A stretch of 64,000 nucleotides of DNA. Origin: Plumapathes pennacea (taxonomy: Eukaryota; Cnidaria; Anthozoa; Antipatharia; Myriopathidae). A program made the position numbers and the translations under genes. The notes beneath the pieces are model-generated. The model did no database searches, was not told the origin of the DNA, and saw only the letters and a program-made list of their open reading frames with translations. Where the stretch lies: positions 33,185,295-33,249,294 of the forward strand of contig OZ038463.1 in the NCBI GenBank assembly GCA_964036295.1, read 5' to 3'. This document shows, piece after piece, positions 1 to 56,794 of the stretch; position 1 is the stretch's first letter, and each line of letters starts with the position of its first letter.

Positions 1-3000
1 CCGCCGCGCAGACGCCCTGCCGATGGTCGAGAATGGGCCTGGGCCTGAGCTCGTTTCAGAGTACCGACGAGGGAGGCCTGGTTCCAACTGCCGAGAGATC
101 TTATGCAGTTCTTCTTCAGTGTGAATTTCTTGTTCCGTGAGGTATTGATGCACTTCAGGAACCTGGTGACAAGAGAATATGTTTTATCGAAGGGGGCTTA
201 ATTTGACTACTTGAACAAGCAGTACACGAGTAAAACCTAGGGGGTTAGTGGGCTGTACGAGAACTGAACGGTCCGATCTTTTGAATAAGGTTTGGACCGC
301 GGTTAACCCTTTCACTACCAAGCTCAAAATGCAAATTCTCCCAACCTTTTATAAGTAAATTGTATGAGTGATGTAGTGAGAATTGACAGCTGAATCAACA
401 TTCATCTTAGCAAACTATCAAGTGACAAATTCTCCCTACTGTATGATATATTTCTGGTGAGATCCTGAAGGAGAAAATTGAAGTTGATCACTCTTGGGAG
501 TGAAAGGGTTAAGAAAGTCCTGGTCTCAAGCTTGTCGGACCACGGCTAAACGCGGTCTTTATAAACCGCCGCCAACCCTGGTTTACGGAGTTCAATCTAA
601 ACTTCAATTTAGTGACACACCAGGTCTAAGTTTTTCTTTAAGCTTTGTTTAAAACTCGAAGAAATGAGTCAAATTTACTCACCTCTTGGAAGTTGTAAAG
701 TTTCTTCTGAAATCGGCGCACTTGGTCAATAACGAGGTAAACCTGAAATAAGGAGCGGAAAATCGAACAAGCTGCACATTAGACCTGTACCACTGAAATG
801 ACAGCTTATTATAAAGCTTAGCCAAAGACAAACAACAGAAAGACAACCAGGAGGAGCATAGCAAAATCAGTCAATGTACGAATTTTCAGAGTCATATAAA
901 CCAAAATGTCGCGAAGCACCGCTATTTTCAAAACTGTAATTTTTGTTCGGTTTTGTATGGCAGGACTGACTTCACGGGCAACCTTGCACGTCCACTTGAC
1001 AAAACTAGTAAGTTTTCGGCCGGGGCCCCTAAACACGGACCGTGGTTGAGACCCGGGGCCCCTTCAAACAATACAAAGCTCACAACAAGCTTACCTGGCG
1101 CCGTTTGGTCAAGTTTATCAGCCCTCCTTTGAGGTAGTCAGGATTCCCTTCTGCGATGAAGGTCAGATCCCTCATAAAGATTCCTAAGCGGATTAACAAA
1201 ATAAAAACTCGCATTATACATGCTGGCATGGAGTCAAGAGGGGAGAAAACACGTATAACTTGGTTGTCTACACCACAGCGCGCAGAGGAGTTCGCTCGCC
1301 TTCCATTATGTAAAACCCTATATACTGACTTACATGAAGGATACCGCAGGACGATTACATCGCGGGCGAGCAAAGGCAGTACGCGCATATGCCTTCGCGC
1401 GCCCGAGATGTAATCGTCTTGCGGTATCATTCATGCGCCACGTGTCTGCACCACCGGGAACACAATCCTTGGCACGGCGTCGCCACTGCAGACCTAGTTT
1501 GGCTAATTCGCTTTATATATTATGCGGTGGCCATATTTGCACTGGGTCTACAGTACTCACCAAAATAGGGCACAGTAGGCGTAGGCGAAGAGCGAAGAGT
1601 TTCCCTGTAGCGTTTGTAGTTATTCTACAATAAGAAAGAAACAACAGAAACGAGTCAGAGATGAAAACATGGGGAGTACGTGTTCCGTATTATCAACGTT
1701 ATTAATCCTTTCAATCCCAAGTTGCAATTTTTGATACAGCAGGGCGCGAGAAATGAGCAAATCATCAAATGGACACATCGCATTTTTCGAACAATTAGTC
1801 CGAAGCCACGAAAGTAGCGATTGCGTTTTCTCGCACTGCTGATTGGTTTCAGCTTTAACCCTTCCACTCCCAAGAGTGATCAACTTCAATTTTCTCCTTC
1901 AGTCTCTCACAGAGATATATCATACAGTATGGAGAATTTGCTACTTGATAGTTTGCTTCGATAAAACTTGATTGGCCTATCAATTCTCACTACATTGTTC
2001 ATACACTTTCTTCTTGAATGGTTGGGAGAATTTGTATTTTGAGCTCAGGAGTGAAAGGGTTAAAACAGATGCAAATAACGTAAGACGAGGTAGAACTGAT
2101 TCACACGGTAAAGCAAGCGCAAGAACTATTTCATTCTCTAGCTATTGCGTTTTGCGTTTGCTTTACTCGTGTGGACTATCAAGTTAAAATTTTTCTTTCA
2201 GTTTCTCACCAGAAACATATACAGTAGAGAGAACTTGGCTTTTGATATCTTGTTCAGATGAAAACTGATTAAACTATCAATTCTCACTACGTCACTTGTA
2301 CATTTTCTTCTTAAACGGTTGAGAGAATTTGCATTTTGAGCATGAAAGTGAAAGCATGAAAGTGTCACAGCGAGGGACAGTAATGTTTAACTAGAGCCTC
2401 GATATCATGTCGTACCCTCGTGTCCATGAGAATCTCCATCTTGGCAAACTGTTCCAGGAATTCTTTGGGAATGAGCTGCAACCAAGTGCAAAATAAGCAC
2501 GTATTAGGAATTTCAAACGATGGGTGAGTCACGTGAGCAGTTTTGGCACGAGGCCGATTAAGCCAATAAACTGGATACCGAGCCAGCTTTGACGCGAGCG
2601 ACATTCTTAGTCTTAAAAGACAAAATCACAATCCACAAGACAAAATCCGGAAAAAAACCTTCAGGTAAAGTCGAGGCACTAACTGCTTGTGTGGCAGGGG
2701 ACTTCTTTTCAAGCACGCGAAAGATCGGAGGAAGCATGGGCCGAGAGCGGCTTCCGCGGCTCCGCGCGCGCTGAACAAGTTAGTCACCAGCTCACCTCTT
2801 TCGTTCGATACAATCTCCTGATTGGCGCACTGCCCAGCGCACCCACCACGATTGCCATGACAGCGTTGAAATTCCGCAGCTCTAGACACAGCTAATTGAA
2901 AACAGAAACGAGGTCAGTTCAACACCCAGCTAACAAAAACAGTTAGGATTTTTTGAACAGTCGAACCTCTCTGGGCGGACACTCTTGTCAGCGGACAACT

Positions 3001-4327
3001 CTACTTACGGACGCCTCTACGAACCCTGTTTAAATTAGCTCAGTCAAATTCTGTATTTGCAAATTCTCGTTAGCGGACAGTTCCAGTTACGGACACTTTA
3101 TCTTTTCCCAAGATATCCGCTTACGGAAGCTTCAACTGTAATTCCTAATCAATTGAGTTTTAGTCATTTTCTGAAGAAACGTATATCGAAGTCCTTTTTA
3201 CCTTCGCAGTTTCGATGAAGTTGATGAACATTTGCGCTCGTCTCTCGACCGAGTCCTCCGTTAAAATGCTCGCTACAACCCAGGTACTCAGCTGAAGGAA
3301 AAACAAAAACACCTCAAAATCATTAAAAAATAAATAAAACTATTGATTAATTAAAATTAATAATAAATAAAAACAACAAACAAAGCTTGACTAAGAAGAA
3401 GTAAATTTGAATAGTATCAGATCAAGTCGCGGAAGAAGTCACTGGATAAGGTTTCATACGTCAGCCCCTTGAGAAGCAGTTGCTAAACCTTGGTTTTCTC
3501 TACCTGGTTGAATCTGTCCGCCACTTTCTCCACCGACAGCTTTCCTCCCGTCCCTGTTTTCCTCTTTTTGCCGGTTCCGAGGGCAATTTTCTTCTGAATG
3601 TCTTCTGCTGTCACCGCACAGTAATATTCTGGCGAGAAGACAAATGCAAAGATTTAGCTATGACGGAGAAATACGAGAGGCTTTCAAATGACCGTCAAGA
3701 GTATTCTGACCAATAAGAGTAAAGCATTTCCGCGACCAATCAAAATAATGCAATTCTGTGACCAATTACATTCTAAAGAGGCTCTTCACCCACGACCAAT
3801 CAGGTGCACAACATCAACCAATGATGATCGCCAAGGAAACAACCACTGCTGCCTACTCTCCCTGCATTATTCTGATTGGTCGGAGTTGCTTTACTTTAAT
3901 TGGACAAAGAACTACCTTACTCTAACAGAAGTCTTTTGCTTTAGGAGGTGGAATCTGAAACTACCTTCTTTATACTAATACAAGCAAACCTTTCGAAAGG
4001 TTAAAATTGTGAGCAGCACATATTCACCTTGGAACGTGACTACCTTGTTACTGAACGCAATGGCGCTTTTAATAGATGGATTTAAGAAACCATCTTGTAC
4101 AGTTTTGGAACTGGATTAGAAACCAGTTTAGGAACCGGTTCTATCAGATAAATCCAAGAAATTAGAAGGGAAACTAACAATACGGTGGGAAACACAAACG
4201 CTTCTAAAATGAATGGGATGTAAACGTCTTTATAACTGTGTGTTCTATTTGTCCACTCACCGTGGTCAATCAGCGTGAGTTGCCGCGCCAGTTCTTTCGG
4301 ATGCTGCAGTAAATCAAACGCCCTACG

Positions 4328-4380
<53 letters not shown>

Positions 4381-7300
4381 TTACTTCACTTCAAATTGTT
4401 GGTCACGATAAACATACATTCAAGGACTGCAGTACAACGCTACTGTTCGACCTTCTACTAATACGGATCCGGCAAACTTTCAAGTCAACAAGTCACAACA
4501 TTTCCTTTGTTTCGTAATCGCTAAAGCGTAGCCCAACATTGTTGGGTGCATTTGAACCGTTTTCCCAAAAATGTTGGGCTCGCGCGCGAACTATCGAAAA
4601 ACGTCATTTATTTGAAGCATTTGAAGTATTTATATCAATTACTCCGAATAGGGCCCCGCCAGCCATAAGGTTTCGATCGTTTTGTACGCGTCTCAATGTT
4701 GCAAGGAAGAAAATGGCGGGAAAATCACACTTCTGCAAGTTTACAAAGTCTTGTGGGTACGCCGAGAACGAGGGGCTAGCGCTCAAAACGTGAGCTTCAA
4801 ACTGTTTCACGGCGTCTAGCTTTCATATATCGACCCTCAGTCGATCCAACTTATACGTATTTCTCCACGCCGACGCAGTCAATCTAGCTCTCTTTAGAGT
4901 TAGTTTTCCATTGCAGTCTAAACCACTCAACTTACGTGAAGTTCCTGCGATCGAATCCAGGCATGTCCGCGTCAGGGGGACAGTGACACACCAACAGCTG
5001 TCCGGCGGGACTCAGTAAGAACAGTCGGTTAATGTTCTCGATATCCGCATGTGGCACTACACCGCTGAACTGAGCCTTCTGACACAGCCCTGCTATGTCT
5101 CGCTCAGCCTCGCTTCCAAACGCCGCGTCGCCCTGGGGCGAATATTGATTATGTTTCGACGCCTGCGCACTCGTTGGGTAGAGGGAGTGTGACTCCGTTG
5201 GGAATCCTTGTCCTTCGACATTCGCATCGATGTCTTCTGTAAATAATAATAATAAAAAAACTGTTCTAAGCATACCGTCCGCAAAAACCTCGTTCCCAGG
5301 CATGGCTCGGCTATGGAAGAGCCTGGAATCTAAAATCGACCAAGAGCAATTTTCTCCTCACAGCGGGTGGAGATGGGGTACGGAGAAGTTGACAGACAAA
5401 TTTCACAACCACCAAGAATGGAATGTGTGAGTGATGTAGTGAGAATTGATAGTTAGATCAGCTTTAATCTGTGCAAACTATCAAATGGCAAGTCCTCCAA
5501 ACTGTTGATATTTCCCAGGAAATTCGAAGTTAAACATTCAGGAGTTCAAGGATCAGAGTGAACCAATGTTATTACGTCAGGGTGAAAGTGTTATTAAGTC
5601 AGAATGAACCATTGTTATTTTAATACGTCAGAGATAAACGGTGTTATTACGTCAGAGTGAACCAGTGTGCCAGAGTAAAAGTTCTATTACGTCAGGGTGA
5701 AAGTGTTCTTACGTCAGAGTGAATGTATTCTTACATCAGAGTGAGTGTTGTTACGTCAGAGTGAAGTGTTACGCATAACGTATAAACACTGGTTCACGTC
5801 AGGGTGAACCAGTGTTTATACGTCCGAGTAAACCAGTGTTATTATCTAAACTTGCTACATAAACACACTCACTTGCAGGCCACGAAAGAACCGAGGCACT
5901 TGGAGGGGAGCTCGCTTCCCACAGTCTGGGACTGGCAGGAGTGCTCTGTAATGACCCTAAAAGATGTTCCTCTGAGTTGTGCGTTCCTGAAAGTGAGCCT
6001 TGACCAGTAGGTGTACTGCCTGCATGAAAAAAAAAAATCAAAAAATCAAAAAATCAAAAAATCAAAAAATCAAAAATCAAAAAAATCAAAATCAACAAAA
6101 ATCTTGAATTAAATGCAGGGGCCGGATTTTCACCAAACTTTTCCCCAATATATCAACCTCAACAGCTGCGTACGAGTGTGAAAGTGACTTATGGCAAAGT
6201 AAACACAAGTGCAACCACAACGTTTTTTTTCCCTTGTGCTTGCGTCCTGGTCCCGTTGACACTTGATTATATTTCTGCTTATACAATAAGTACTCTGTAT
6301 GGTCTGTATCATACACGCACCACGTCATTCACATTCTTGTATGATTATCTCCACTTCCTACCTCTGGCACCAGGAGCACCAAACTCCGCCTCTGAGCCAA
6401 TCAAATTGTTCGGCCCCACAGCTCCCATGGTGCCTTGCTGGTAGGGCGCCGAGGTTGACAACTTGGCCGCTACCGAAGACTGCCGCTGGAACTTCCGTTG
6501 TGATAAGCCTGGGATCGAGGATGCCACACAAGAAATGGCGCGTTCTCGGGGGCCTGTGATCGAGTCACTGTCGTAATTCAATCCCAGGCCTGGCCTGTGA
6601 GCCTCTTTGTCCAGGGCCCTGGGACCCCAGATCCCCTTATTATCTTCGGCATACTTGCTCCACGGAGAAAAATCCTGCTTCGCCAATACCTTGAGGTAGA
6701 ACAGACATTTTAACCATTTTAATATATTCAACTTGGACGGGAATATATCCAAAACCCCGATAACTCACAAGCTAAGAAACCGCTCGTCTCTTTCGCAACA
6801 ATAAAAACAAGGTACAAAAAAAAAGAAGACAAATATCCACGTCAACTCACGCCATTGTGTGCGCCCGCGCGTGGGCAGCGGCAATTACTATCGAACGATG
6901 AAAGCATGCCGATAAAGGACAAATACAACGATCGTTCCGAAATATCTAACAACCATCATTTTTACGAACGTTCACAACAAAAAGAATCGACAGTATCAGA
7001 GGAATGTCATGCACCAGCGACCGCCCTGACTGCTTGATAAACGCGTACAGTGAACTCTCTCTAAGGCCCGTTTCAAACGTCGCGCCAATGCCGTGCCGAA
7101 CTCAATGCAAATGAGCTCAAACAATGGATTTCGCTTATTTGCAGTGAGTTCGGCACGGCAGTGGCGTGACGTTTCAAACGGGCCTAAGCGAACACCCTCG
7201 GGACTAGCGTTCAGTGTCCGGCCTTAGAAAGGTGAATGCCTTTGAGAGAGTTCAGTTACAAAGAAACAAGTGAAAATCGGCAAAGAGCAAATCTGCATGC

Positions 7301-10300
7301 TGTCCGCTTTAGAGAGAGTTGACTGTGTTACAAGCGCATGTTACGTAGTTTGGACATTGGAGCTTGATTTTCATGCAAGGAGTTCAAACGTGACGCACTT
7401 ACCTTAAAGTTAGCTCGCGTGCAGTTAAACATGACGTCTGTTATTTCCTTGAATATCCTAAAAGTAAACAACAACAATGAAAACAAAACAAACATACAAA
7501 CAAATAACAACAACGATCATGACTAAAGGCACTTCACGAAGGAGGAGTGCATGTCCGAGTCATTGAATGAATAGAGAGCTTAAGCAGCAGGACGGGAGAG
7601 GACGACGGCAACGTCGGTGAAGCAGTAGAACTCATTGCAGAAGACAAAAGGCGCACGTGAATATGTGAAATTGACATGATCTCGGGTCGTCGTGCTCTCG
7701 CGTGCGACTCCAACTTCTTCTTTTTTATGCTGTTGTCAGGACGTTGACGACACTTTGAGAAATTACGACAATCGTTTTTCTTATTTGGAGACGATGAAAG
7801 CAGTAGAACTTCGGCAAAAACGGAACAAATTTGAACAAATTAAGAATTGGCAAAGTTAGGATACAAAGACATAAGGAATACGGAGACACTCTTTTCCTGG
7901 TTCCTCGTGTTGCCGTCGCCGTCCTAGTTTGCTTAAGCTCCCTAATGTCAACGTGCAGTGCGTAGTGTGTGAGGACACCGCTGAAATACGTTTTGCGGGC
8001 GTGCGGTCACCTTGCTTTTGAGCCAGCGGTTATTGCACAAAACCGTGAATTCAAGTGCAGATTGTGGAGTTAAATGTAATGCTCGTAAAACCTCAAGACA
8101 ATAAACTTAATAGTAGGACTTGATACTCAACTATAAGTTAGTTCAATGCATTTTCTATAACATAAGTTGTGTAGAGGAAAAACGAGGCTTGCTCACAAAG
8201 TGAAACTTTACCTCAAATTATGAGAAGTTATATAGCCATGGTGACAAACGCCGACCAGCGGAAGTGACGTCAAGAAAGCATTTCCGCGGTGCCGCGTGAG
8301 TAAGTTAAAGTGCGCGAGAAAAGACAGAAAATAGTACTACACAAATACACTTCAAGGTACACGAACTCTGTTCTGAGACATACCCCTTCCTCTCGAGCAA
8401 AAACTCAAAAGTCAACTTCACGAACTCCACTCTTAATTTGGTGTCGTTTTCAACCAAAGTCCACCGCTTTAACTCCTTGAACGGCCAAACGCCAACGGTA
8501 CTCTAACGAAAAAAACAAACAAACAAACAAACAAACAAACAAAGAAAAACAACAACAAAACGCAACAAAATCAACTTAATTCTACAGAAAGTATTTTCAT
8601 GTGGAGTCATGGAACATTTCATTCCTGAAAATGATCAACTTCCGTTTTATCTTGAAGTCTCTTATCAAAACTATATCACGCAGGATATAGAACTTGGCAC
8701 TTCACAACCTCGTTCCCAGGCTCTTGAGGCCGGGAGAGGAAGAGCCTGAAAACAAGCTTGCTCAGATGAAACTACCGTATTAATTCTCTTTCGAGCACTC
8801 GTACATTTCCGGATAATTTGTATAGTCAACTATAGGCTTCAGTGAGACTCAGTGACCAAACTGAATATTTGGTGATGATGCACGGGGAGCCGTTTTGGGA
8901 GAAGAAAATTGAATTAAAGGTTCATGTCTGAAGTACCGACCTTTGTCTTCTCATCCAATATGACTATGTTCTTGGGACTGATACCAAACAAACGTCTGAT
9001 GGTCCCGGATTTTGCGCTGATAGTACCCTTGCACTCCTGTGAGGAGGACAACAAATACGTCAGTGTAACCCACGAAAAATGCAGACAAAGAGGAGGAGAA
9101 GGACAGAGAGGGAGAGGGAAAGGGAAAGGGAAAGGGAGAGGGGGAGGGGGGGGAGGGAAAGGGGTAGGGAGAGGGGGACCCCCCGGGCGTGTGTAGCGGC
9201 TGTATCCGCACGCTAAAAGGTTGAGAGCGCGATGGTAATTTATTCGAAGACGCTTACACAACTATTTCGCTCCAGTACATCAAACGAGGCGATCTACTCG
9301 TACCAGGCTCGCGGTTTTTACCTTCAGATGGAAGAACTGACAGCCGTAACTTGGAAAGCTCTGGCAACAGTCGATGTAAGTGTGCTTTGCAGTGCGCTCA
9401 GACATCCCTCCAAGCACTAAACTCTCGTGTTGCGCTCTAATTCTGTAAAAAGCAACAGCCGACAACAACAACAATAAGTTCATATTTTACAAGCATACCG
9501 CAAGCCCTCGGTGATTAAACTATCAATTATCGCTAACATCACTCGTACATGTTCTTCCTAAAACGTTGGAAGAATCCATATTTTAACAGCAGAACGTACC
9601 TCCTGGCGATGTTCTTCTCTCTGTACAGAGAAGGGCTGAGACTCTGTTTAATCCGAGATGCGCTTATCCTGCAAGAAATAACTGCATGTTACAGTAGCAC
9701 CGAGTCTTGCATCCTCGTTCCCATGCTCTTTATCTGAAGCATTAATGAACAGTTGCCTGCCTCACTCAAAGTACAATGGACACCTGACAACAATAACAAC
9801 AACAACAACAACAACAACAACAACTACAATATTGAAAACACTGAATTCCTACTTGTCTCGAGCACCACTTTGGAACCACTGTCGGCTTCTGGACTCTGAT
9901 GGAGACAAGTCCTGGAAAAGAAGCCATAAAAAAGTAATAATAATAAATCAATAAAAAATAAAAAACAAGCGAGCCAAGGTAAAATGCAATATTGATTTTA
10001 CTTTCAAAAAGAGATCAAGTAAACGTAACAACATTTCACGTGCTTGTTTACAGATCTACCAATTTGTGTGGAACAACAAAAACCAGCAGCAAACGCAAAA
10101 ATAAAAGGCATTCACACACTATCATTCGACGGTCAACTCTCAACAAGAATGAGAAACAGACAGACAGACAGACAAACAAACAAGTTTACAATATGCAGCA
10201 ACAGAAAAAAAAACAAAAACAAAAACAAACAACTGGATGAGAAATATGAAAAAATGGCCAGAAAACACAGGAAGGAATGTTTTTTTATAGCCATTCTTAA

Positions 10301-19300: not shown

Positions 19301-22300
19301 CCATTAAAAAAGTGTAATGTAAAAAAGCTTTTAAAGCGAAGTAAATGGCTAGATCAAACAAATCCAAAAGCGCTAAACGAAAAGTTTGACAGGACGAATT
19401 TTTTGAATCGGTTGTCAAAATGAAAAGGAAAATCGAGGTTGATAATTTAGGGTTAATTTTGTCATAACACTTCATCAAATATGGCACGGCTTTCACTTGC
19501 ACTTTAAGAGACAACAACCTATACAATACATACTTGTACATGTCCCACTCTTGTAGGGTTATCCGGCTCCACGTTCGGCAGGACAACACTTTGCTTTTCT
19601 CCTGTTGCTTTCTGCAGCATCGCTGGTTCAACCGAGACCTCCACATTTGCATCACCATCACTCTCAACAGTTGACACTGTTTGTGTCACGTGTTGCGATG
19701 TCAACTGTGTATTTTCGTTAGGCTGTTCGGCATCCACCGAATCTGACGTCACACCCGTTGCTATGGCAGCAGCAGCTCCACGTGACTTTCCTTGTTCAGG
19801 TGTAGTCTTTTCTTTGTGCGTGCGCTCTGGCAGATCAAACTCTCGCCTCACCTCCCTGGCAGGACGCTGCAGACTGCGCGATCGCATGAGGGAGGCCTTC
19901 CTGACATTACCTGTCAGGAATGGTAATAATGAGCAAGTTTCACTAGTCGGCACTAATTTGGTCGGTGGTCGGTATGTGTTTGGCACATGGTCGGTAAGTG
20001 GTCGGTATGTGGTCAAAATGTGGTCGGTACCTGGTCGGTAGATGGTCGGTACACGGTCGGTAACGGGTTGGTATGTGGATGGGTAAGGGTCGGTACGTGG
20101 TCAGAATGTGGTCGGTAACGTGGTTGGTATGTGGTCGGTATGTGATCGGAATGTGGTTGGTAGTGTTTTCACACCGCACGTATGTCTAGTATACCTAGAA
20201 ATAATGTTTACTTGTGACTAGTCATAAATACAGGAATCACAGATAAACAAGGAAACTGAACTTGTTCTGGCACAGACTTTTTGTGTACTTGAGTTTAAAG
20301 AGACCCTCTCACCGTAGATGCTTTGCGTGCCGATTCTCGTATTTTTCTACGTTTTATCGCGAAATATACAAGCACAAACTCAGAAAGTGTATTGAATACG
20401 GCAAACAGCGACAGTCAGATCGATCAGCCATAACGTGGGCACCTCAGGAAAGTTAAGCTCCGGATGTAAATATAAACATGGGCGCGCAAAGCATCTACGG
20501 TGAGAGGGTCTCTTTAACCCTTTCACTCCCAAGGGTGATCAAGTTCAATTTTCTCCTTCAGTTTCTGCAGCACAAATATATCATACAGTAAGGAGAACTT
20601 GGCTTTTGATACCTTGCTTACATGATAGCTGATTAAACTATAAATTCTCACTACATCACTGATATAAAGAGGTTATTACATGGGAAGGAGTGCAATACGG
20701 CGGAGTATTTTTACGAGTCGGTTTCATTTTTTCGAGCCTGTTTCAGGCGAGAAAAAATAAAACTGACGAGTAAAAATACAGACGTATTGCACGACTTCCC
20801 GTGTAATAAATTGTTTATTATACGACAAACGAAGCAGGGAAAACGTTCTCGCCGCGCGCAAAATGGAACAAAAAAACGACGCGTTCGTAAACTTTGCTTG
20901 CGAAAAATGATCACGTAAGCAAATAAACCAGTTGTTCTGGTTCCTGACGAGTGCAATACGCTCCTATCTTTGCACTCGTTTTGGCCTGTATTTGCACTCG
21001 AAAATGTAAAGTCGTATAATAAAATTTCTTCTTAAAAGGTTGGGAGAATCTGAATTTTGAGCTTGGGAGTGAAAGGGTTAAACCTCTTACTCACCTAAAA
21101 GAGGGCTCAGAGTCCTTGACAAGTGAATACTCTCTGACCGTTGTATGGCACCTTTGCCTCGACCAGATCCTCCTTTGCTACTTGCAATTGAACACAGGCT
21201 CGATGATCGTCTTTGCAGTGAGGATCCCTGTCGAAAAGACCCTGCACTTGACTTGGACCTAAAGCTGCTGTTACCCGACCACTGCATGTTTGAGGAAGCA
21301 TTTGAGCTTGACCTCGATTTAGACACATCTGCAGCAGCAAATGCTTCACACGCTGACTGTACAAGCAGTCTCTGCATTTCCTTGAGCTCCTATCAGAAAC
21401 GTGAAGACATGAATTACGATAGTCAGTAACATAACTAATTCCTTTTGCGGTAAAAAGTATCTGATTGATATATACTGAGGAGTGAGCTGATAAAAGAAAC
21501 GTTACACCAGTAAATTAGTCAAATATTTTTATCATTTCCAATAAAAATTCAGCAAACATTTCTTGCCATTCCCCAATTGACTTGAGTGTGATTTTTGCCA
21601 TATACACTTTTTGATATGTACCTGAAACCAATAAAATTTAGACATATAACATAGTTTCCAAACTATTAGTGTTGTTTGTCCTTGAAGGGTAACTGTTGGT
21701 TATAAATGATCATTATATTACATGGTACACTTCTTATACCAATGTTGATCTTGCCTGTGCTACATCAGAACTAAACACTGATACAGTCTGTAAGTGAAAT
21801 AGCAACAGAATCCTCATTCTGGACCTCCACCCCCCCCCCCCCCCCCCCCCCCCCAAAAAAAATAACAATAAAATAATAAATAAATAAATAAAAAATAAAA
21901 ATAAGGAAGTAGCAGAATTCCTTATGATACTGCCTGTGATTGCCACTGCCTGTATGATTCTCTGAAGTCTTGTGATTCATTGAGTTCTGGAGTTAGTTGT
22001 GGCCAATCACAGCCAATTAAAGCACTATGCTACTTCACTGTGCATTCTGGCGCTGTTTCTCTAAAGTGATCCCTTTCAGCTGATAATTTATCATATATAA
22101 ACAGGTACACTGGGTTAATATGTGTTTGTACATAATTAATTTGGCTGTGTTCACAGGATAATTTGTTGGAACTGTGTCTAAATGTTGAAAGTAAACCCAT
22201 GCAGGGACAGTAGCAAGATAATGACAAGTAATATATTGCTTGATCCCCACGAGTCAATCCAATATCTTTCAAAGCATTATACAATCATATAGGTTGCAGT

Positions 22301-25300
22301 ATATTGATACATCATTCAGCTGTTTGTAGCATTATCACCGAGTTATCTTCGTCGAATTCAAATAAGTTTTTTATTGCCTAGTGAATGCATGCACAAGAAG
22401 GGATCAAAATTAGATTTATTAATACTTACTGAGTCTAAATCCACTGGTCTTTCACCCTGGATGGTGTTTTCATAAATACGAGCTCCATGTTCAATAAGCA
22501 AGTACGACACTTCGAGGTTGCTCAGGAGTCTGGCCGACATGTGCAATGGAGTGCGGCTGAAATGGCACATCAAGAGGAGTAAATGACAAGTTACAGTAAG
22601 TACTGACTTCAAGCTTAACTGTTCTCTCACACACTCAGAAGGACAGCATTCAGAAATTCAACATCCATTGTACTGTACCTCAACTACATGTATTATGGCA
22701 TGTACATGAATAAACATGAGGTCATTATTACGGCACAATGAAATAAAAGTTCGGTAGATCGCCTAAAGGCAAGCTGCAACCATGACTCACTAGCCTGGAT
22801 AGTTTAACCAGCTTTCTCCTTAGCAGGTTTGTAAGGAAAATGTACTAGCCCTGGCAGAAAAATGTGGTAGTGGACACAGCTTTTTTCTCATGCCATGGCA
22901 TGCCAACATGTTCTTTAATTTCTATCTATATTGGACTATAGCACCAGTTCAATCAGGATGTACTTACAAGGTGATGTCCTTTGCTCTCACATTGGCACCA
23001 TTTGCTAGCAACAACTGTGTAACAGCTCGGTTTCCCTCTGCAGCTGCAATGTGCAATGGAGTCTTGTCCTCAGGTCCCTCCCAGTTCACTTCAGCTCCTC
23101 TGGTGAGGCATAAAGACTTTCAGTTAGAAACTGCTTCCAAGTGTTAGTACAAAAATTGTGCCAAGTGACACATTGAGATTTGGTAGTTTAATCTTACTCA
23201 TATTAAAGCTGATAAACAATCAGTTCTCTCTACATTACTCATACAGTACTTCTACTTAAATGGTTGGGAGAATTTGTATGGTGAGCTTAGGTGTTAACAA
23301 GCCCACCTTCTCAGTAACATCTGCACCATATCTGCTTTCCCCACTGCAACAGCATGATGCAGCAATGTCCTACGGGAACGGTCACTAGCGTTCACAGAGA
23401 GTCCGTCATCCAGACACCTCTCAACAAGTACTCTGTCATTCTTCACAATGGCATCCATGCACGACTGAATCTCCTCATTCTCAGTGGGCAATAATTCTTG
23501 TTCTGGCACAGCAACAGAATCTGAAATTGTGTCTTTATGGAAGGAAGGAACATAGCATGATTGAGCTGGAAGTTTCGGTATTGACACATTACTCTTCTCA
23601 ACTTCTAATTCCCCCTGTTGTTGCTGCTGCTGACTAGAAGCAGTTCCCTCTAGGAATATGGAAGACGATTCCAAATTGGTTTTTCTTTCTGGCGTTGCTT
23701 CAGCATTCTCCAACACTTTTGCATACCCAACTGCTGATGGTACCGGATGAACTTCAACCTCTACAAATCTCTGTTCACTGGGTAATGGCACAACCTGCGC
23801 TGGCACCAGACCTTCTGCCTCTTGTCTCACCGCTTGTTCCTTGCCATCACTATCGCTACCATCTGAAGGCACAGGCGATAAAGCCGAGAACTCTACATGT
23901 CTACCACTAGTGTGTAAGCTTGCTGGATGACGAAGAATTGATTGACTTGTGGAAGCTTTGGTAAAGTGCTTTGATCCAAGCTTAGCATGAGATATCTTTC
24001 CACTGATGCCATCAATACCAACTTTCCGTCGTCTGGATTCTCGGGCGTATACATCAACTGTTGATGAAGTTGATACTTCTGAATTGGTACACGTCCTTTC
24101 TGAGCTACTGTTGGAGACCGAACTCCTTTGTCGGCGTGCATGCCTCTGCTTTTTCTCTCGGATCATTTTCCCAATAGTTTTGAATGAAAACGCCAAGGTC
24201 CTAACGATGCTTGCAGCCTGATGGGAGAAGAGGTAACACAAAACCAGATTTCAGAGATGTCAAACTCAAAATCATTTTCAATTTAGGGAGCCCCCAGCCA
24301 AAAATTAGCAGGGAAAATAATATTTTAGTGGGGTAGTATGGAGTATACTGAGGGTGGCTGACAAATGATACCTTAAAATTCGTGGGTCTCGCAAACTTTT
24401 GATCTGGTCTCGGAATCTCGGAAGCCTTTTTGATTAGTATCGAAATCTCGTTTTTTGTGTGTTCATTTCGGTCTCGGAGTCTCAGATTTTTTCCGTGCGG
24501 TCAGGATCGTTGGAGTCTTGGGCTCGGATTTTGAAACGTGCGTCTCTGCATCTCGGCGAGTCTCGGATTTTACCATTCGCCACCCCTTATTGAGGGTGGC
24601 TGGGGAAGGGAATAAACTGTATGATAGTTGTGCTGGTTGTCTACTGTATAGCCAGTCTTGATGTTGTTTTCAAACAGCAGAGTCAGATAAACTAGATGAT
24701 AGTTCTACCAACTACATCCACCTCCCACAAACACCCCTCTAAGACAAACACCTATCTAAGATGGACACCTAGTAGTAGTGGTGTCTGCCGTTTCATTAGT
24801 CATTTACACTCTCTTAAATGGACAGTTGTAGCTGGTCCTGAAAGTGTCTGTTGCAATATAGAAAGATGACTGTACATTAAAGATGATAATGTACAAGTGC
24901 TATATTGAGAAAATAAAATAATTCTATTTTATTATTGTCTTTCCTGTGATAGACTGAAAGCATTTTTTTCACTTCAATAAAAGATTCTCAGCAGTTATGA
25001 TATTTGTGCAGCCTGAAAAAACAGACAGATTTTTCTACTTGTTACATTGCAAGGCCGAAAAACACTGTCTGCAAAACCAATTTGACAAACAACTTCCCCA
25101 ACATCACGGCTATCTCAACAAAGACCAGGCAGAAATCACGAAAGAATGGTAATTCCTTTGTCTTCCTTATTGTGTTTTGTTTTAGAGCTAAATTTCAATT
25201 GGACAAATTATGTAAAGTCACTGAAGTAATTAATTTGTTGTCTGTAAGCTCGGTTTTACAGATCGTAGTTTTCCATTTCGCAAAGCAGCAGGCAGCAAAT

Positions 25301-27001
25301 CTGCGTTTCTTTGCAGGCTACTGAGTACACTGCAGTGCACAAAATTTCATAAACATGTTTAAATAACTGTGCATTCACAAGAGCATATGGGGGTAGATGA
25401 TTTTAAAACATCTGTACGTGCATGGCAGTCTGCCGAACAAGGAAAGTGATGTCAAGGAACATATATTTCCACATGCCTCCTCCTCTATTCAGCTACCATT
25501 AGAACGGCCATTTAGAATTCCAATAAAGCATTCAAGCCTTTCAATTTCCTTTTGCTTGTGCTTTTTTGGAAGGGTGGTTGATCAAATAGGCTGAATGAAT
25601 GAAGTTTAATTGCCTGAAATATGAATTAAAGCGGGTCAGAGCTTAATAGGAAAACACAAGTTTCACAACGACACAGCTGACTTAATTGGTTTGTGTTTAT
25701 GAAATGTTCACGAGGCTTAACACGTGAACAGTTTTCAGCCATTGTGTTGCGCGTGAATTCATTATGGCAAAAAGAAAAACAAGTTATGAAGTACCAGCCC
25801 CGACGATCAGCTTGGTGAATTGCAAACTCTTAGCTTACTGTAGCATAGAAGAAAAGAGAGAAATGAAAATGGGACCACCCAAACAGAAAAGGTCAAGAAA
25901 ATTCAATATATGCTGTCGCTTCTAGCGTGTCAAGAAATTTGATATGTCGTAAACATCGGTGAGCGGTCAAGGAAATAATTCTGAATACAAAAAATACAGT
26001 TATCTGTGTTTATGGATAGAGTAATTCACAAGAAAAACCAGACTGAAACGAATTACAGAAACATAAACTTGAACAATTGTGAAAATCTCTCGATAAATAT
26101 TCCCGGAAATTAAGATTTTTGTTTTGATGGTTGCAGCTCACAGACGTGATCGAGCGATAAATGTATCCTTTTTCCTGTGAAAGGCTTGTATCTTGCTTGC
26201 GTATGAAGGTGTGTGTGTGTGCCAAAATTCCGATATATCTAAATGTGTAGCTTTCAAAATTGTCATAGATAAATTGCGCGCGATATATCTGAAGGGACCT
26301 GAAGAGATTTGTAGTAAGATTTCGCCTGACCTCCGGCACATGTCTACGAGTACTGTACAATATATTCGCCAAACACGTTTATAAACAGATAAAAATCGTG
26401 TTCTTTAAGTATTTTAGTGGTGAAAACGACCCACAAAAACAGGCGCATTCAGTCAACAATTTTGAGTGCTGGCCTCTTGTAAACAAAGAGGACTACCCAC
26501 CTCGTATTGAGATCCCGCTTGAAAGACATGGCTCATATGAGTGCCTTTCCTCGTAATGTTACACCCAAAAGTCGATTCAAATCCTCGGAGTTGTTCGTGG
26601 GCACATAACGCCACAGCATACAGCGGTGCTGTGAGAACCAGAGAGTTCGAATTCACACAACTGACTTTCAGAACGCCGTCCCGAATCGTGAAATCAACCC
26701 GTATGACCTTCCGACGAGCTTGTGCTTGTTGCTTTTTCACTCTCTTCATGGTCTCTAACAGAAGTGTCACAGACTGAGCTTCGGATATTTGGGCTGACCC
26801 AACAAAGTCAACAATGAAGTGTAATTCCTCGGAGCTGTAATCTTCAACGAGGCGCCCTTCCGTTACCCAAGAAGGGCCCGACGAAGCATTCACGCTCGCT
26901 TCGCCGTCCCCATCCGGTTGCTCCTGTGTAGTGTCCGAGACTGTTGGAGCTTCCCTGCCAGGCTTGAGCCATCTTTCATTTAAACGTCTTAGAGAGAACA
27001 T
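1..27001 (-). CDS. Giant multidomain Ras-family GEF: PTB-ANK-ARM-REM-FERM-RasGEF (37 exons, 3' end off the window)
   Basis: I read 37 exons: 26501-27001, 23307-24217, 22968-23099, 22430-22556, 21095-21389, 19534-19910, 18631-18891, 18119-18208, 16867-17258, 16075-16230, 15055-15163, 14671-14729, 14292-14374, 13568-13616, 12967-13200, 12400-12562, 11805-11900, 11014-11085, 10467-10550, 9853-9911, 9600-9668, 9322-9358, 8941-9036, 8384-8502, 7403-7457, 6362-6689, 5873-6019, 4936-5236, 4261-4322, 3504-3628, 3202-3291, 2796-2879, 2416-2475, 1561-1624, 1095-1183, 683-742 and 1-162. Every junction is GT-AG and phase-consistent, giving about 2,066 codons without a stop. The start ATG at 27001 is preceded by an in-frame TAA near 27079 with no ATG between. 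Predicted role: a membrane- or receptor-associated activator that exchanges GDP for GTP on a Ras/Rap-type GTPase. Family knowledge supports each domain; the combined function is inferred. The terminal exon lies beyond base 1. Confidence 0.86.
305..512. mobile_element. MITE family 1, complete copy
   Basis: About 207 bp with inverted ends AACCCTTTCACT and AGTGAAAGGGTT and an AT-rich core. The same core motifs (CAACTTCAATTTTCTCC, ATCATACAGTAAGGAGAACT, CAATTCTCACTACATCAC) recur in at least ten places in this window. It has no coding capacity. Confidence 0.8.
1290..1435. repeat. Foldback repeat (family of 38138)
   Basis: GAAGGATACCGCAGGACGAT is mirrored by ATCGTCTTGCGGTATCATTC around CGCGGGCGAGCAAAGGC. 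It shares CATTATGTAAAACCCTATAT with the element at 38138. Confidence 0.7.
1857..2062. mobile_element. MITE family 1, complete copy
   Basis: Ends AACCCTTCCACTCCCAAGAG and AGGAGTGAAAGGGTT with the shared core. A second, end-trimmed copy follows at about 2184-2358. Both lie in a GEF intron. Confidence 0.8.
2184..2358. mobile_element. MITE family 1, trimmed copy
   Basis: The core motifs TTTCTTTCAGTTTCTCACCAG, GAGAACTTGGCTTTTGATA and TCAATTCTCACTACGTCAC are in the usual order but the terminal repeats are degraded. It ends close to the RasGEF exon at 2416-2475. Confidence 0.65.
2958..3141. mobile_element. Family-3 MITE with pogo/Tigger-like ends
   Basis: Begins CAGTCGAACCTCTCTGGGCG and ends CTTCAACTG, with internal GCGGACA repeats. 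These ends resemble those of Tc1/mariner-class pogo-like elements. Confidence 0.55.
3708..3905. promoter_or_regulatory. Cluster of CCAAT-box motifs in a GEF intron
   Basis: Seven CCAAT or ATTGG sites in about 200 bp (GACCAATAAG, GACCAATCAA, GACCAATTAC, GACCAATCAG, CAACCAATGA, GATTGGTCGG, TAATTGGACA). Spacing is about 25-40 bp at first. It could be a repeat or an internal NF-Y-bound enhancer; the sequence does not decide. Confidence 0.35.
4329..4378. repeat. Microsatellite (CA)n
   Basis: About 24 uninterrupted CA units within seven bases of the 4261-4322 RasGEF exon. Read on the gene strand it is (GT)n directly upstream of the acceptor, in the polypyrimidine position. Confidence 0.9.
5565..5840. 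repeat. Minisatellite with ACGTCAGAGTGAACCAGTGT units
   Basis: An irregular array of 20-45-bp units built from TTACGTCAGAGTGAA and CCAGTGTTATTA. It ends about 30 bp before the 5873-6019 GEF exon donor. Confidence 0.75.
6028..6103. repeat. Microsatellite (AAAAATC)n
   Basis: Eight or so near-perfect AAAAATC units. It begins ten bases past the acceptor of the 5873-6019 exon. Confidence 0.85.
7047..7328. mobile_element. Family-3 MITE carrying a nested palindromic element
   Basis: Outer ends CAGTGAACTCTCTCTAAGG and TTTAGAGAGAGTTGACTG. Within it, 7064-7190 is a separate element with long inverted ends AGGCCCGTTTCAAACG and CGTTTCAAACGGGCCT around TGCCGTGCCGAACTCA and its complement. Confidence 0.7.
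7573..7950. mobile_element. Relative of the element at 47486
   Basis: GAGAGCTTAAGCAGCAGGAC at the left and GCCGTCCTAGTTTGCTTAAG near the right; the internal sequence is diverged from the 47486 copy. Confidence 0.62.
9080..9180. repeat. Purine-rich (GGGAGA/GGGAAA)n tract
   Basis: About 100 bp of G/A only, ending in poly-G and a CCCCCCGGG step. On the gene strand it is the long polypyrimidine stretch of the intron before the 8941-9036 FERM exon. Confidence 0.85.
10306..10442. repeat. Dispersed repeat of about 135 bp, copy 1
   Basis: GTGGGCAAAAATTGGGTTCG through ACTTGTGTGGTATATACTAA is almost identical to 37846-37982, 27 kb away and in the same orientation. It is non-coding, in a GEF intron. 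Confidence 0.78.
11545..11781. mobile_element. MITE with GGGCCCGGTTTTTC ends inside a family-1 remnant
   Basis: Inverted ends GGGCCCGGTTTTTCAAAGC and CTTTCGAAAAACCGGGCCC with TAATCCTGGATTAG motifs near each end. The flanks (TTTTAAGCTCA and AGGAGTGAAAGGGGTAA) are the split right end of a family-1 MITE. A related copy lies at 32942-33178. Confidence 0.72.
12130..12350. repeat. Dispersed repeat family 4, copy
   Basis: ACATCTAGAAATGTGT, GAATTTGGTTCCCAACA, TAAGTAGCACCTTTAGG and GGATGGAAATGGCTTG recur in the same order at 62650-62830, and inverted at 18300-18510. There is no coding potential. Confidence 0.65.
12400..13616 (-). other. REM (RasGEF_N) domain of the giant GEF (exons 14-16)
   Basis: Residues about 1165-1313. 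The segment FAEDGTYVRGATVEKIVEIL is the usual entry to a RasGEF N-terminal (REM) domain. It continues with IIDFLLTVYQSFVHPVILC and, in exon 16, MRLWKAWLDKYPEHFVNN, which matches the REM rule of an R-x-L-x-W segment before a DF/HF end. A Ser/Arg/Pro-rich insert of about 30 residues (13080-13150) with RRSLGRTSSPS interrupts the domain between its first and second helices. In known GEFs REM packs on the catalytic hairpin and is needed for activity. Confidence 0.84.
14470..14655. mobile_element. MITE family 1, degraded copy
   Basis: Family-1 core from ATCAATTTTCTCCTTCC to GGGAAGTGAAAAGATT; the terminal repeats are weak. It ends about 15 bp from the 14671-14729 ARM exon. Confidence 0.65.
15670..16010. 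mobile_element. Family-3 MITE with a nested insertion
   Basis: Repeats of AGACGGACA and TAAAACGGACA with an end TTGAAGGGAGATGACTG. A second element, bounded by GCTCGACATTAA and TTAATGTCGAGC (about 15818-15977), is inserted in it. Confidence 0.62.
16533..16772. mobile_element. Family-3 MITE with an internal tandem duplication
   Basis: Starts CAGTCAACTCTCTCTAAGG and ends GAGTGAGTTCACTG. An 80-bp block (AGGCGGACAGCATTCAGATT and onward to TTTCTCTGTAACTGAACTCT) occurs twice in tandem, a likely unequal-exchange or nested event. Confidence 0.68.
17358..17564. mobile_element. MITE family 1, complete copy
   Basis: Starts AACCCTTCCACTCCCAAGCT and ends GAGAGTGAAAGTGTT, in the opposite orientation to the copy at 17666. 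Confidence 0.75.
17666..17868. mobile_element. MITE family 1, copy
   Basis: Starts AACGTTTTCACTCCAAGAGT with the family core and ends near TTGAGAGTTAAA. With the copy 100 bp upstream it forms an inverted pair in the same intron. Confidence 0.7.
18290..18512. repeat. Dispersed repeat family 4, inverted copy
   Basis: Reverse-complement order of the family seen at 12130: CCACTTCCATCCGACTCG, AAAGTGCTACTAACC, TCGTGTTGGGAACCAAATTC and GATTTTCCAAATGTAAAC. Confidence 0.65.
19945..20165. repeat. Minisatellite of TGGTCGGTA units
   Basis: About 20 units of 8-14 bp (GTGGTCGGTATG and variants). It starts about 35 bp upstream of the 19534-19910 exon acceptor on the gene strand. Confidence 0.85.
20290..20514. 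mobile_element. Palindromic MITE abutting a family-1 copy
   Basis: Ends AAAGAGACCCTCTCACCGTA and TACGGTGAGAGGGTCTCTTT are perfect complements. The internal GATGCTTTGCG / CGCAAAGCATC extends the pairing. Confidence 0.78.
20516..21080. mobile_element. MITE family 1 copy interrupted by a family-2 element
   Basis: The left part (20516-20663) and right part (21018-21080) together make one family-1 MITE with AACCCTTTCACTCCCAAG and CTTGGGAGTGAAAGGGTT ends. The middle is an unrelated element of about 350 bp (see 20664-21017). The nesting shows family 1 was already present when the second element inserted. Confidence 0.78.
20664..21017 (-). mobile_element. Family-2 element of about 350 bp, nested copy
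   Basis: Marked by AGGAGTGCAATACGGCGGAG, TTTTTACGAGTCGG, TTTTATTTTTTC near a sharp inverted repeat, CTTCGTTTGTCG (read in reverse) and CGAGTGCAATACGCTCC. Copies in the other orientation lie at about 51395-51735 and 57027-57375. It has no coding capacity. Confidence 0.72.
21829..21854. repeat. Poly-C run followed by A-rich sequence
   Basis: About 25 C in a row followed by (AAAT)n-like sequence. Similar G or C runs lie near 13289, 15279, 16408, 37118, 41410, 49988, 52305, 52520, 54205, 54617 and 62586. Confidence 0.85.
22430..23560 (-). other. Ankyrin repeats of the giant GEF (end of exon 2, exons 3-4)
   Basis: Residues about 400-560. Four ankyrin units are visible. A degenerate one comes first (CMDAIVKNDRVLVERCLDD). 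The next begins RRTLLHHAVAVGKADMVQML, exon 3 has KTPLHIAAAEGNRAVTQLLL, and exon 4 has RTPLHMSARLLSNLEVSYLL. The TPLH-A and LLL-GA signatures are intact, and the repeats run across phase-2 splice sites. A partial fifth unit follows in exon 5 (ELKEMQRLLVQSACEAF). Ankyrin stacks bind protein partners; the partner is unknown. Confidence 0.86.
23950..27001 (-). other. PTB/PID domain of the giant GEF (exons 1-2)
   Basis: Residues about 55-190. The first exon carries the beta-sheet core: HFIVDFVGSAQISEAQS is the first strand and helix, VIRVDFTIRDGVLKV the middle strands, and GTHMSHVFQAGSQYE the last strand. The second exon opens with AASIVRTLAFSFK, the typical long C-terminal PTB helix, so the fold is completed exactly across the 26501/24217 splice. 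PTB domains bind NPxY peptides or phosphoinositides, so the protein is probably recruited to a receptor tail or membrane. Ligand choice cannot be read from sequence. A basic Arg/Ser stretch and a run of six Gln follow in exon 2. Confidence 0.78.
24360..24600. repeat. Dispersed GTCTCGGAATCTCGG repeat, copy 1
   Basis: GGTCTCGGAATCTCGG, TCGGAGTCTCAGATTTT and TACCATTCGCCACCCCTTA recur, inverted, at 59730-59925. It lies in intron 1 of the GEF. Confidence 0.65.
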
Positions 27002-29477: not shown

Positions 29478-29905
29478 GTTGGATGGAAAATGTGGAGTGC
29501 GGAGTATGCAAAATGCGGTGTGACGTAACCTTTATTGAAAATGTGGAGTGTGGAAAATGTGGAGCCTTGCGTAACTTTAAGGAAAAAGCGGAGTGTGGAG
29601 AATACGAAGTCTTACGTAACTTTTATGGAAATGCGGAGTGTGGAAAATGTGGAGCCTTACGTAACTTATGGAAATGCGGAGTGTGGAAAATGTGGAGTCT
29701 TACGTAATTTTTATGGAAAATAAAGTGTGGAAAATGTGGAGCCTTACGTAATTTTTATGGAAAATAAAGTGTGGAAAATGTGGAGTCTTACGTAATTTTT
29801 ATGGAAATGCGGAGTGTGGAAAATGTGGAGCCTTACGTAACTTTTATGGAAATGCGGAGTCTTACTCAACTTTATGGATAATGTGGAGTGCGGAAAATGC
29901 AGAGT
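29478..29905. repeat. Minisatellite of about 43-bp units
   Basis: Ten or so units of the form GGAGTGTGGAAAATGTGGAG followed by CCTTACGTAACTTTTATGG. Copies are slightly diverged. It lies in the spacer between the GEF and the carboxypeptidase, and it reads open in several frames only because of its regularity. Confidence 0.85.
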
Positions 29906-56600: not shown

Positions 56601-56794
56601 GGATGAATCCAAAGATGATTGATAAAACAGGTGATGTGTTAGAAGAGACTTCAGACGATAGTATTAGTGATGTTCTCTTGGAGCAGGAGTATCTCTTGGA
56701 CAGTAGCATCACTGTTAGAGATTTGTGTGACAGAGAGCAAGTTGAGGTGGTCGATTTTGTGCGCTACGAATGTGGAGAAAAGTCTCTTCCCTGA
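53668..56794 (+). CDS. TSFM: Mitochondrial translation elongation factor Ts
   Basis: Three exons, 53668-53776, 54799-55097 and 56156-56794, joined in phase, give 348 residues, about the family length. EF-Ts recharges EF-Tu by exchanging its GDP. The N-terminus (MAARLAGGGTCFLARLLPIR) is Arg-rich and lacks acidic residues, as expected for a mitochondrial presequence. The UBA-like domain is LLSKLRRETGFPFSKCRDAL followed by NDYEAAVNWLHEQAEKEGW. The core has the hallmark VNCETDFVGRNETFVDLV at the start of exon 3 and NVIGSYVHGPFVTSGSCMLG in the dimerisation half. The gene ends YECGEKSLP. It is head to head with the carboxypeptidase gene. Two mobile-element copies and minor repeats occupy intron 2. 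Confidence 0.95.
54186..54648. mobile_element. Element bounded by TTGTAACCCC and poly-G/poly-C
   Basis: GTTGTAACCCCAGGGAGGGG at the left and CCCCTGGGGTTGTAACCC at the right, with ATATTTCCTATATAGGGACG twice inside. It lies in TSFM intron 1. Confidence 0.65.
55192..55397. mobile_element. MITE family 1, complete copy in TSFM intron 2
   Basis: Ends AACCCTTTCACTCCCAAGAG and CTTGGGAGTGAAAGAGTT. It is followed at once by a divergent second copy starting AACCCTATTACTCCCAAG (55397 to about 55760), whose middle carries unrelated sequence. Confidence 0.78.
55919..56073. mobile_element. Family-3 MITE, short copy in TSFM intron 2
   Basis: AGTCAACTCTCTCTAAGACG at the left and TAAGAGGGCTTCACTG at the right. 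It ends about 80 bp before TSFM exon 3. Confidence 0.7.

What the first reader, a model, noticed from the sequence alone, without database searches (positions are those of the whole stretch)
1..27001. A Ras-family GEF with PTB, ankyrin, armadillo, REM, FERM and RasGEF parts in one chain
Seen in the sequence: 37 exons joined in phase on one strand, with family motifs for each domain in that order. Known families: human RasGEF proteins (SOS, RASGRF, RASGRP, RAPGEF, RALGDS, RALGPS, KNDC1, PLCE1, RASGEF1) do not, as far as I know, combine a PTB, ankyrin and ARM module with a FERM. Inference: it may be a receptor-to-small-GTPase scaffold that binds an NPxY tail by PTB and the membrane by FERM. This is the best candidate for an undescribed system here.
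Basis: partly seen in the sequence, partly recalled or inferred. Interest (0 to 1): 0.8.

Follow-up and report, generated by a model that had tools for sequence, protein, structure and literature searches.

The report
RasGEF with built-in talin-like FERM
A real animal gene encodes one large protein that joins a Ras-family switch activator to a talin-like adhesion module and to PTB-like, ankyrin and armadillo-like parts, so it may link cell-surface receptors directly to small GTPases.

Summary
A minus-strand gene starts at the ATG at 27001 and reads through 37 in-phase GT-AG exons to window base 1; flanking DNA of the same genome shows a TAG 48 bases outside the window, giving 2171 aa without internal stop. 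In the full protein Pfam passes its cut-offs for RasGEF (2.4e-54), ankyrin (5.4e-24), FERM_M (3.5e-13), RasGEF_N (5.9e-8) and an F3-type PTB fold (7e-5). The N-terminal PTB is borderline and the ARM array stays below cut-off. PTB, ARM-REM and FERM pieces match the 290-Mb genome only here. Best mechanism: a receptor-proximal RasGEF whose talin-like F3 (perhaps with the PTB) docks an NPxY-type tail and releases the GEF; inferred, not shown. Ten paper searches found no description, but eukaryotic protein databases could not be searched, so novelty across species is open.

The parts
26501..27001 (-). exon 1: start codon, PTB/PID body (aa 1-167)
   Evidence: PID 62-182, 21.0 bits vs cut-off 20.9 as a fragment; 62-181, 16.2 bits in the full protein
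23307..24217 (-). exon 2: last helix of PTB, linker, first ankyrin repeat (aa 168-470)
   Evidence: ties PTB and ANK to one exon
22968..23099 (-). exon 3: ankyrin repeat 2
   Evidence: Ank_2 453-543, 5.4e-24
22430..22556 (-). exon 4: ankyrin repeat 3
21095..21389 (-). exon 5: Ser-rich linker
   Evidence: open frame and phase
19534..19910 (-). exon 6: linker
   Evidence: open frame and phase
18631..18891 (-). exon 7: start of ARM-like helical repeats (by eye)
   Evidence: open frame and phase
18119..18208 (-). exon 8: ARM-like repeat (by eye)
   Evidence: open frame and phase
16867..17258 (-). exon 9: ARM-like repeat (by eye) plus low-complexity loop
16075..16230 (-). exon 10: ARM-like repeat; 5' border uncertain
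15055..15163 (-). exon 11: ARM repeat
   Evidence: Pfam Arm 18.2 bits, below cut-off 20.6; designed ARM proteins 7.1e-7 summed over four repeats, single stretches 0.3-1.8
14671..14729 (-). exon 12: ARM repeat; weak donor
   Evidence: ARM alignment runs into it; donor score
14292..14374 (-). exon 13: last ARM-like helix (by eye)
   Evidence: phase and splice sites; not the best frame by codon score
13568..13793 (-). exon 14: region without family match; weak acceptor, an alternative in-phase acceptor at 13616 would make it 49 bases long
   Evidence: best of six frames but negative codon score; AF2 single-sequence pLDDT 62
12967..13200 (-). exon 15: REM (RasGEF_N)
   Evidence: RasGEF_N 1240-1376, 33.3 bits vs 28.3
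12400..12562 (-). exon 16: REM
11805..11900 (-). exon 17: end of the REM match and link
11014..11085 (-). exon 18: link and start of F2
10467..10544 (-). exon 19: FERM F2
   Evidence: FERM_M 1421-1534, 3.5e-13
9853..9911 (-). exon 20: FERM F2
9600..9668 (-). exon 21: FERM F2
9322..9442 (-). exon 22: end of F2, start of F3
8941..9036 (-). exon 23: F3 (PTB fold, talin type)
   Evidence: IRS 1544-1584, 23.2 bits vs 22; talin
8384..8502 (-). exon 24: F3 with KRW (within aa 1578-1585)
7403..7457 (-). exon 25: last helix of F3 (by eye)
   Evidence: not the best frame by codon score
6362..6689 (-). exon 26: linker; acceptor ambiguous by 15 bases
5873..6019 (-). exon 27: linker
4936..5236 (-). exon 28: linker and approach to CDC25
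4261..4322 (-). exon 29: RasGEF (CDC25) catalytic domain
   Evidence: RasGEF 1896-2080, 2.4e-54
3504..3628 (-). exon 30: RasGEF
3202..3291 (-). exon 31: RasGEF
2796..2891 (-). exon 32: RasGEF
2416..2475 (-). exon 33: RasGEF
1561..1624 (-). exon 34: RasGEF
1095..1183 (-). exon 35: RasGEF, helix H with the SOS1 E942 equivalent
683..742 (-). exon 36: C-terminal part of CDC25, beyond the Pfam match
   Evidence: PDB alignments
1..162 (-). exon 37: end of CDC25 and tail; coding continues 48 bases outside the window to a TAG

Best explanation
One gene without a close paralogue found in its genome encodes a 2171-aa guanine-nucleotide exchange factor of the CDC25/RasGEF kind: PTB - ankyrin - ARM-like repeats - a stretch without family match - REM - talin-type FERM F2-F3 - CDC25. 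Most likely it works as a receptor-proximal exchange factor. The talin-type F3, and perhaps the N-terminal PTB, docks on NPxY-type tails of adhesion or endocytic receptors. Ankyrin and ARM-like repeats hold partners. Docking of the F2-F3 block, which is wedged between REM and CDC25, changes the REM-CDC25 arrangement and switches on GDP release from a Ras-family GTPase. Shown: the gene model by computation, domain homologies and order, kept catalytic region. Inferred: the ligand, the gating, the GTPase (weakly Ras or Ral rather than Rap, from similarity ranking only).
For: 37 in-phase exons, complete frame. Pfam over cut-off in the full protein for RasGEF, ankyrin, FERM_M, RasGEF_N and IRS/F3. 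The best 19 of 60 PDB sequences listed for the F2-F3 piece are talins or talin fusions, then kindlin-2; 33 of 96 aligned residues are identical to talin-1, with the KRW that in talin holds the NPxY-binding Arg-Trp pair (role recalled). CDC25 piece: best PDB matches yeast Cdc25 8.2e-36, RASGRF1 (listed as guanine nucleotide-releasing protein, 2ije; name recalled) 4.6e-34, RALGPS1 2.9e-31, SOS1 5.9e-27, EPAC2 (listed as RAPGEF4) 5.7e-25. SOS1 E942, G943, N944, P945 equivalents are kept; F929 is Tyr as in RASGRF1 and L938 is Thr as in yeast Cdc25. Own-genome matches to three other pieces lie only here: 2 of 2, 6 of 6, 9 of 9.
Against: No transcript, no relative from another species (searches found none in collections of viruses and prokaryotes) and no binding or exchange data. 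PTB is below cut-off in the full protein. ARM is below Pfam's cut-off and its PDB E-value sums four repeats whose single stretches score 0.3-1.8. F1 was not found, so a classical FERM is not met. Exon 13 is not the best frame by codon score, exon 14 scores negative and its acceptor is weak. SOS1 R826, T829, N879 and L938 differ. The role of KRW and of the catalytic residues is recalled, not tested. The own-genome FERM search listed no match outside this locus, so not even this animal's talin, which must exist; it therefore excludes close copies only.
Confidence: 0.5

Rival explanations
1. Two genes: PTB-ANK-ARM ending at the in-frame TAG after exon 12 (about 14669), and a separate REM-F2F3-RasGEF gene starting between 14.6 and 13.2 kb.
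For: Read straight on, exon 12 ends ...LLNHSDPW and stops. Its donor is weak (0.7), the acceptor of exon 14 is weak (0.3), and exons 13 and 14 have poor codon scores.
Against: Exons 13 and 14 join 12 to 15 in phase and use the two strongest donors of the gap (14292, 6.0; 13568, 5.5). Exon 13 reads like the next ARM helix (by eye), and the REM match starts at the codon split by the 14/15 junction. I did not search for a start exon of a second gene.
Confidence: 0.1
2. A membrane-docked RasGEF in which F2-F3 binds phosphoinositides, not receptor tails, and the PTB acts as a protein or lipid dock without NPxY.
For: FERM and PTB folds often bind phosphoinositides (recalled). The PTB is divergent.
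Against: The talin-type KRW is kept. Not decisive.
Confidence: 0.25
3. A scaffold whose CDC25 domain is no longer an active exchanger.
For: No activity data; SOS1 positions R826, T829, N879 and L938 differ.
Against: RasGEF profile at 2.4e-54 over its full length, E942-G-N-P kept, REM present; L938 and F929 changes occur in yeast Cdc25 and RASGRF1.
Confidence: 0.12

Closest known systems
Talin (FERM F2-F3)
   Same: Best PDB sequence match of the F2-F3 piece, 1.6e-11, KRW kept
   Different: No F0/F1 or talin rod match; carries REM and CDC25
RASGRF1 / yeast Cdc25 / RALGPS1 (RasGEF catalytic domain)
   Same: Closest solved CDC25 domains
   Different: None has PTB, ankyrin, ARM or FERM parts (recalled)
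EPAC and PDZ-GEF (RAPGEF2/4/6)
   Same: A domain (RA) inserted between REM and CDC25 (recalled), the same slot as F2-F3 here
   Different: No FERM (recalled); EPAC2 CDC25 ranks lower
KRIT1
   Same: Ankyrin repeats and a FERM in one chain (recalled)
   Different: No GEF (recalled); KRIT1 ankyrin model scores 15.2 bits against a cut-off of 80; no KRIT1 chain among the 60 listed for F2-F3
Drosophila CG34393 (RasGEF gene)
   Same: Recalled, uncertainly, as a multi-domain invertebrate RasGEF that may be a relative
   Different: Could not be tested; 4 papers name it, and the passages seen in 2 of them only list it

Membership tests
RasGEF (CDC25-homology) exchange factors | RasGEF catalytic domain above Pfam cut-off | tested here: met
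   184.4 bits vs 23.1
RasGEF (CDC25-homology) exchange factors | REM / RasGEF_N domain before it | tested here: met
   33.3 bits vs 28.3; 40.2 bits as a fragment
RasGEF (CDC25-homology) exchange factors | Helix-H catalytic residues (SOS1 L938, E942; role recalled) | tested here: inconclusive
   E942-G943-N944-P945 kept; L938 is Thr, as in yeast Cdc25
RasGEF (CDC25-homology) exchange factors | GDP release from a Ras-family GTPase | not testable with these tools
   needs an assay
FERM domain proteins | F2 lobe | tested here: met
   FERM_M 50.4 bits vs 23.8
FERM domain proteins | F3 lobe of PTB/PH fold | tested here: met
   IRS 23.2 bits vs 22; talin F3 alignment
FERM domain proteins | F1 lobe (FERM_N) | tested here: not met
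   no FERM_N match; 44 residues lie between the REM and F2 matches
Talin | F0-F1 and rod domain | tested here: not met
   no such Pfam match up to E 0.1 in 2171 aa
PTB/PID proteins | PID above Pfam cut-off | tested here: inconclusive
   21.0 vs 20.9 as a fragment, 16.2 in the full protein; PDB Numb 0.029
Armadillo repeat proteins | Arm above Pfam cut-off | tested here: inconclusive
   18.2 vs 20.6 bits; designed ARM 7.1e-7 summed over four repeats, single stretches 0.3-1.8
KRIT1 | KRIT1-type ankyrin domain | tested here: not met
   15.2 bits vs 80

The most novel reading that the evidence does not exclude
An ancient animal exchange factor, lost from vertebrates, that couples integrin-type NPxY tails directly to Ras-family GTPases by a talin-derived F2-F3 block built into the GEF itself, so that adhesion gates GTP loading without adaptors such as Crk-C3G or Grb2-SOS.
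Probability: 0.2. Interest if true: 0.8.

Novelty: new variant of a known kind. Interest (0 to 1): 0.5.

Why it matters
Receptors usually reach Ras-family GTPases through separate adaptors. A GEF with a talin-like F2-F3 between REM and CDC25 would make a direct and testable link between adhesion receptors and Ras signalling, in an animal line that kept a part which, as far as I recall, humans lack. It also offers a clean test of how a domain wedged between REM and CDC25 controls exchange.

Tried and rejected
First automatic model: zero-length exons and spurious fillers, and three FERM exons missed; mended by phase and by eye. A 35-exon model with an ARM-REM junction at 14681/13198: rejected because it used a poor donor and lost the REM glycine; replaced by exons 13 and 14. 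For exon 14 a second in-phase acceptor at 13616 scores better than the one used (13793) and would remove 59 residues; I kept the longer form because its frame stays open, and cannot exclude the shorter. Fillers 16002-15916, 15644-15606, 15318-15256 and 5329-5276: phase-neutral and weak, left out. Relatives: a viral-contig scan with exon 1 (14 pattern matches, 0 relatives) and a genome-contig scan with the CDC25 piece (26, 0 relatives). NCBIfam on the F2-F3 piece: nothing. Structures: exon 14 pLDDT 62, low confidence; exon 1 pLDDT 39, not usable. A fold search of exon 14 could not be run. One review on Ras regulators, looked up by a recalled DOI, is not held. A RasGEF tree was not built: the PDB tool shows only five alignments per search.

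Full report
What was checked. The window is eukaryotic: 64 kb of a genome of 290 Mb in 24 contigs, at C2:33185295-33249294. Its species is not given; the repeats and style look cnidarian to me (recall only). I built an exon model on the minus strand with a small splice-aware programme and then by hand.

Gene model. The start codon is at 27001. The final model has 37 exons; 36 of 36 introns are GT-AG, 157 to 2283 bases long. The window's edge cuts exon 37. I fetched 20 kb to the left: coding runs 48 bases further to a TAG at -48 to -50, with ATTAAA at -111 and -199 (0 being the base left of base 1), so the protein is complete at 2171 aa. Control: codon scores trained on the other half of the gene favour the used frame over the five others in 26 of 37 exons; in the other 11, of 55 to 163 bases, another reading scores higher. 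Stops are penalised in that score, which favours exons chosen to be open. Weak points: exon 13 (not the best frame), exon 14 (best of six but negative score, weak acceptor at 13793, a better-scoring in-phase one at 13616 that would remove 59 residues), the weak donor of exon 12, the 5' border of exon 10 and the acceptor of exon 26.

One gene or two. The dangerous place is after exon 12, where the frame read straight on meets TAG. Exons 13 and 14 bridge it in phase with the two strongest donors of the gap; exon 13 reads like the next ARM helix (by eye) and the REM match begins at the codon split by the 14/15 junction. With the bridge the RasGEF_N match starts at profile position 3 instead of 22 or 25. 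PTB end and first ankyrin repeat share exon 2. I give two genes 0.1; I did not look for a separate start exon.

Domains. In the full protein Pfam passes its cut-offs for RasGEF 1896-2080 (2.4e-54), ankyrin 453-543 (5.4e-24), FERM_M 1421-1534 (3.5e-13), RasGEF_N 1240-1376 (5.9e-8) and IRS/F3 1544-1584 (7e-5); PID at 62-181 is 16.2 bits, below 20.9, but 21.0 as a fragment. PDB matches of the PTB piece are weak: Numb 0.029, GULP1 0.032, a PH-PTB adaptor 1. ARM is 18.2 bits against 20.6. Designed ARM proteins reach 7.1e-7, but this sums four repeats of the target that match the same stretch; single stretches score 0.3-1.8 (query with the loop left out). So ARM-like is fair, ARM proper is not proven.

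The FERM piece. By sequence it is talin-like: the first 19 of the 60 rows listed are talin chains or talin fusions, from 1.6e-11, then kindlin-2 from 4.3e-7; merlin and radixin score 0.02 or worse. Identity to talin-1 is 33 of 96 aligned residues and the KRW is kept. No F1 was found; only 44 residues separate the REM and F2 matches. So it is an F2-F3 pair, placed between REM and CDC25. In EPAC and PDZ-GEF the RA domain lies in this slot (recalled).

The GEF. The CDC25 domain is nearest to yeast Cdc25, RASGRF1 and RALGPS1, then SOS1, EPAC2 and RASGRP1. The SOS1 alignment has 68 of 200 identical positions in the part compared; E942, G943, N944 and P945 are kept, L938 is Thr as in yeast Cdc25 and F929 is Tyr as in RASGRF1, while R826, T829 and N879 differ. 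It is probably active. The GTPase cannot be named; the ranking weakly favours Ras or Ral over Rap.

A stretch without family match. Up to about 90 residues in exons 13 and 14 before REM match no Pfam family, and the PDB search with them found only SOS matches to the REM part. The single-sequence model of exon 14 is beta-rich with one helix at pLDDT 62, too weak for a fold name.

Copy number. The PTB piece gave 2 of 2, the ARM-REM piece 6 of 6 and the FERM piece 9 of 9 matches in this locus at E up to 1. This animal's talin was not listed, so the search excludes close copies only. The genome has 22 RasGEF matches by exon, 1 in this window; these are lower bounds.

Mechanism. I take it as a receptor-proximal RasGEF. 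F3 of talin type, possibly with the PTB, docks on an NPxY-type tail; the ankyrin and ARM-like parts hold partners; docking frees the CDC25 domain. Only the parts list and order are shown; docking, gating and substrate are inferred.

Known or new. Ten searches of the paper library showed no paper on such a protein (listings only, 25 of 66 listed, plus one passage in each of two papers). That library lacks most subscription papers. No eukaryotic protein database was available; I expect predicted orthologues to be on file in other invertebrates. Hence 'new variant of a known kind', interest 0.5.

Noticed in passing
window 54771-55130 and 56084-56791 (+): Open frames of a mitochondrial-type elongation factor Ts gene (EF-Ts_N 1.6e-20, EF_TS 1.7e-28).
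   Followed up: partly
window 57889-58929 (-): 347-aa open frame with an EamA-type transporter match (9.3e-19).
   Followed up: partly
window 42113-42179 (-): tRNA match just above Rfam's cut-off (29.4 vs 29 bits); ARAGORN finds none.
   Followed up: no
window 13568-14374 (-), exons 13-14: Up to about 90 residues between ARM and REM without any family match; possibly a small beta-rich domain.
   Followed up: partly
L009, about 4.4-5.4 kb and 6.6-9.1 kb left of the window (-): A 351-aa open frame that reads like a seven-helix receptor and an 855-aa one that reads like TELO2 (by eye, not searched).
   Followed up: no
L001 (G000 C4:1487726-1488241): A RasGEF match over the whole profile in one 918-aa open frame: an intron-poor RasGEF elsewhere in the genome.
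   Followed up: no
L004 and near (G000 C2:32788572-32790164): Three RasGEF exon matches about 0.4 Mb from the window on the same contig, opposite strand.
   Followed up: no
window 29498-29860 and 31744-31990: Tandem arrays with 45-base and 48-base units.
   Followed up: no
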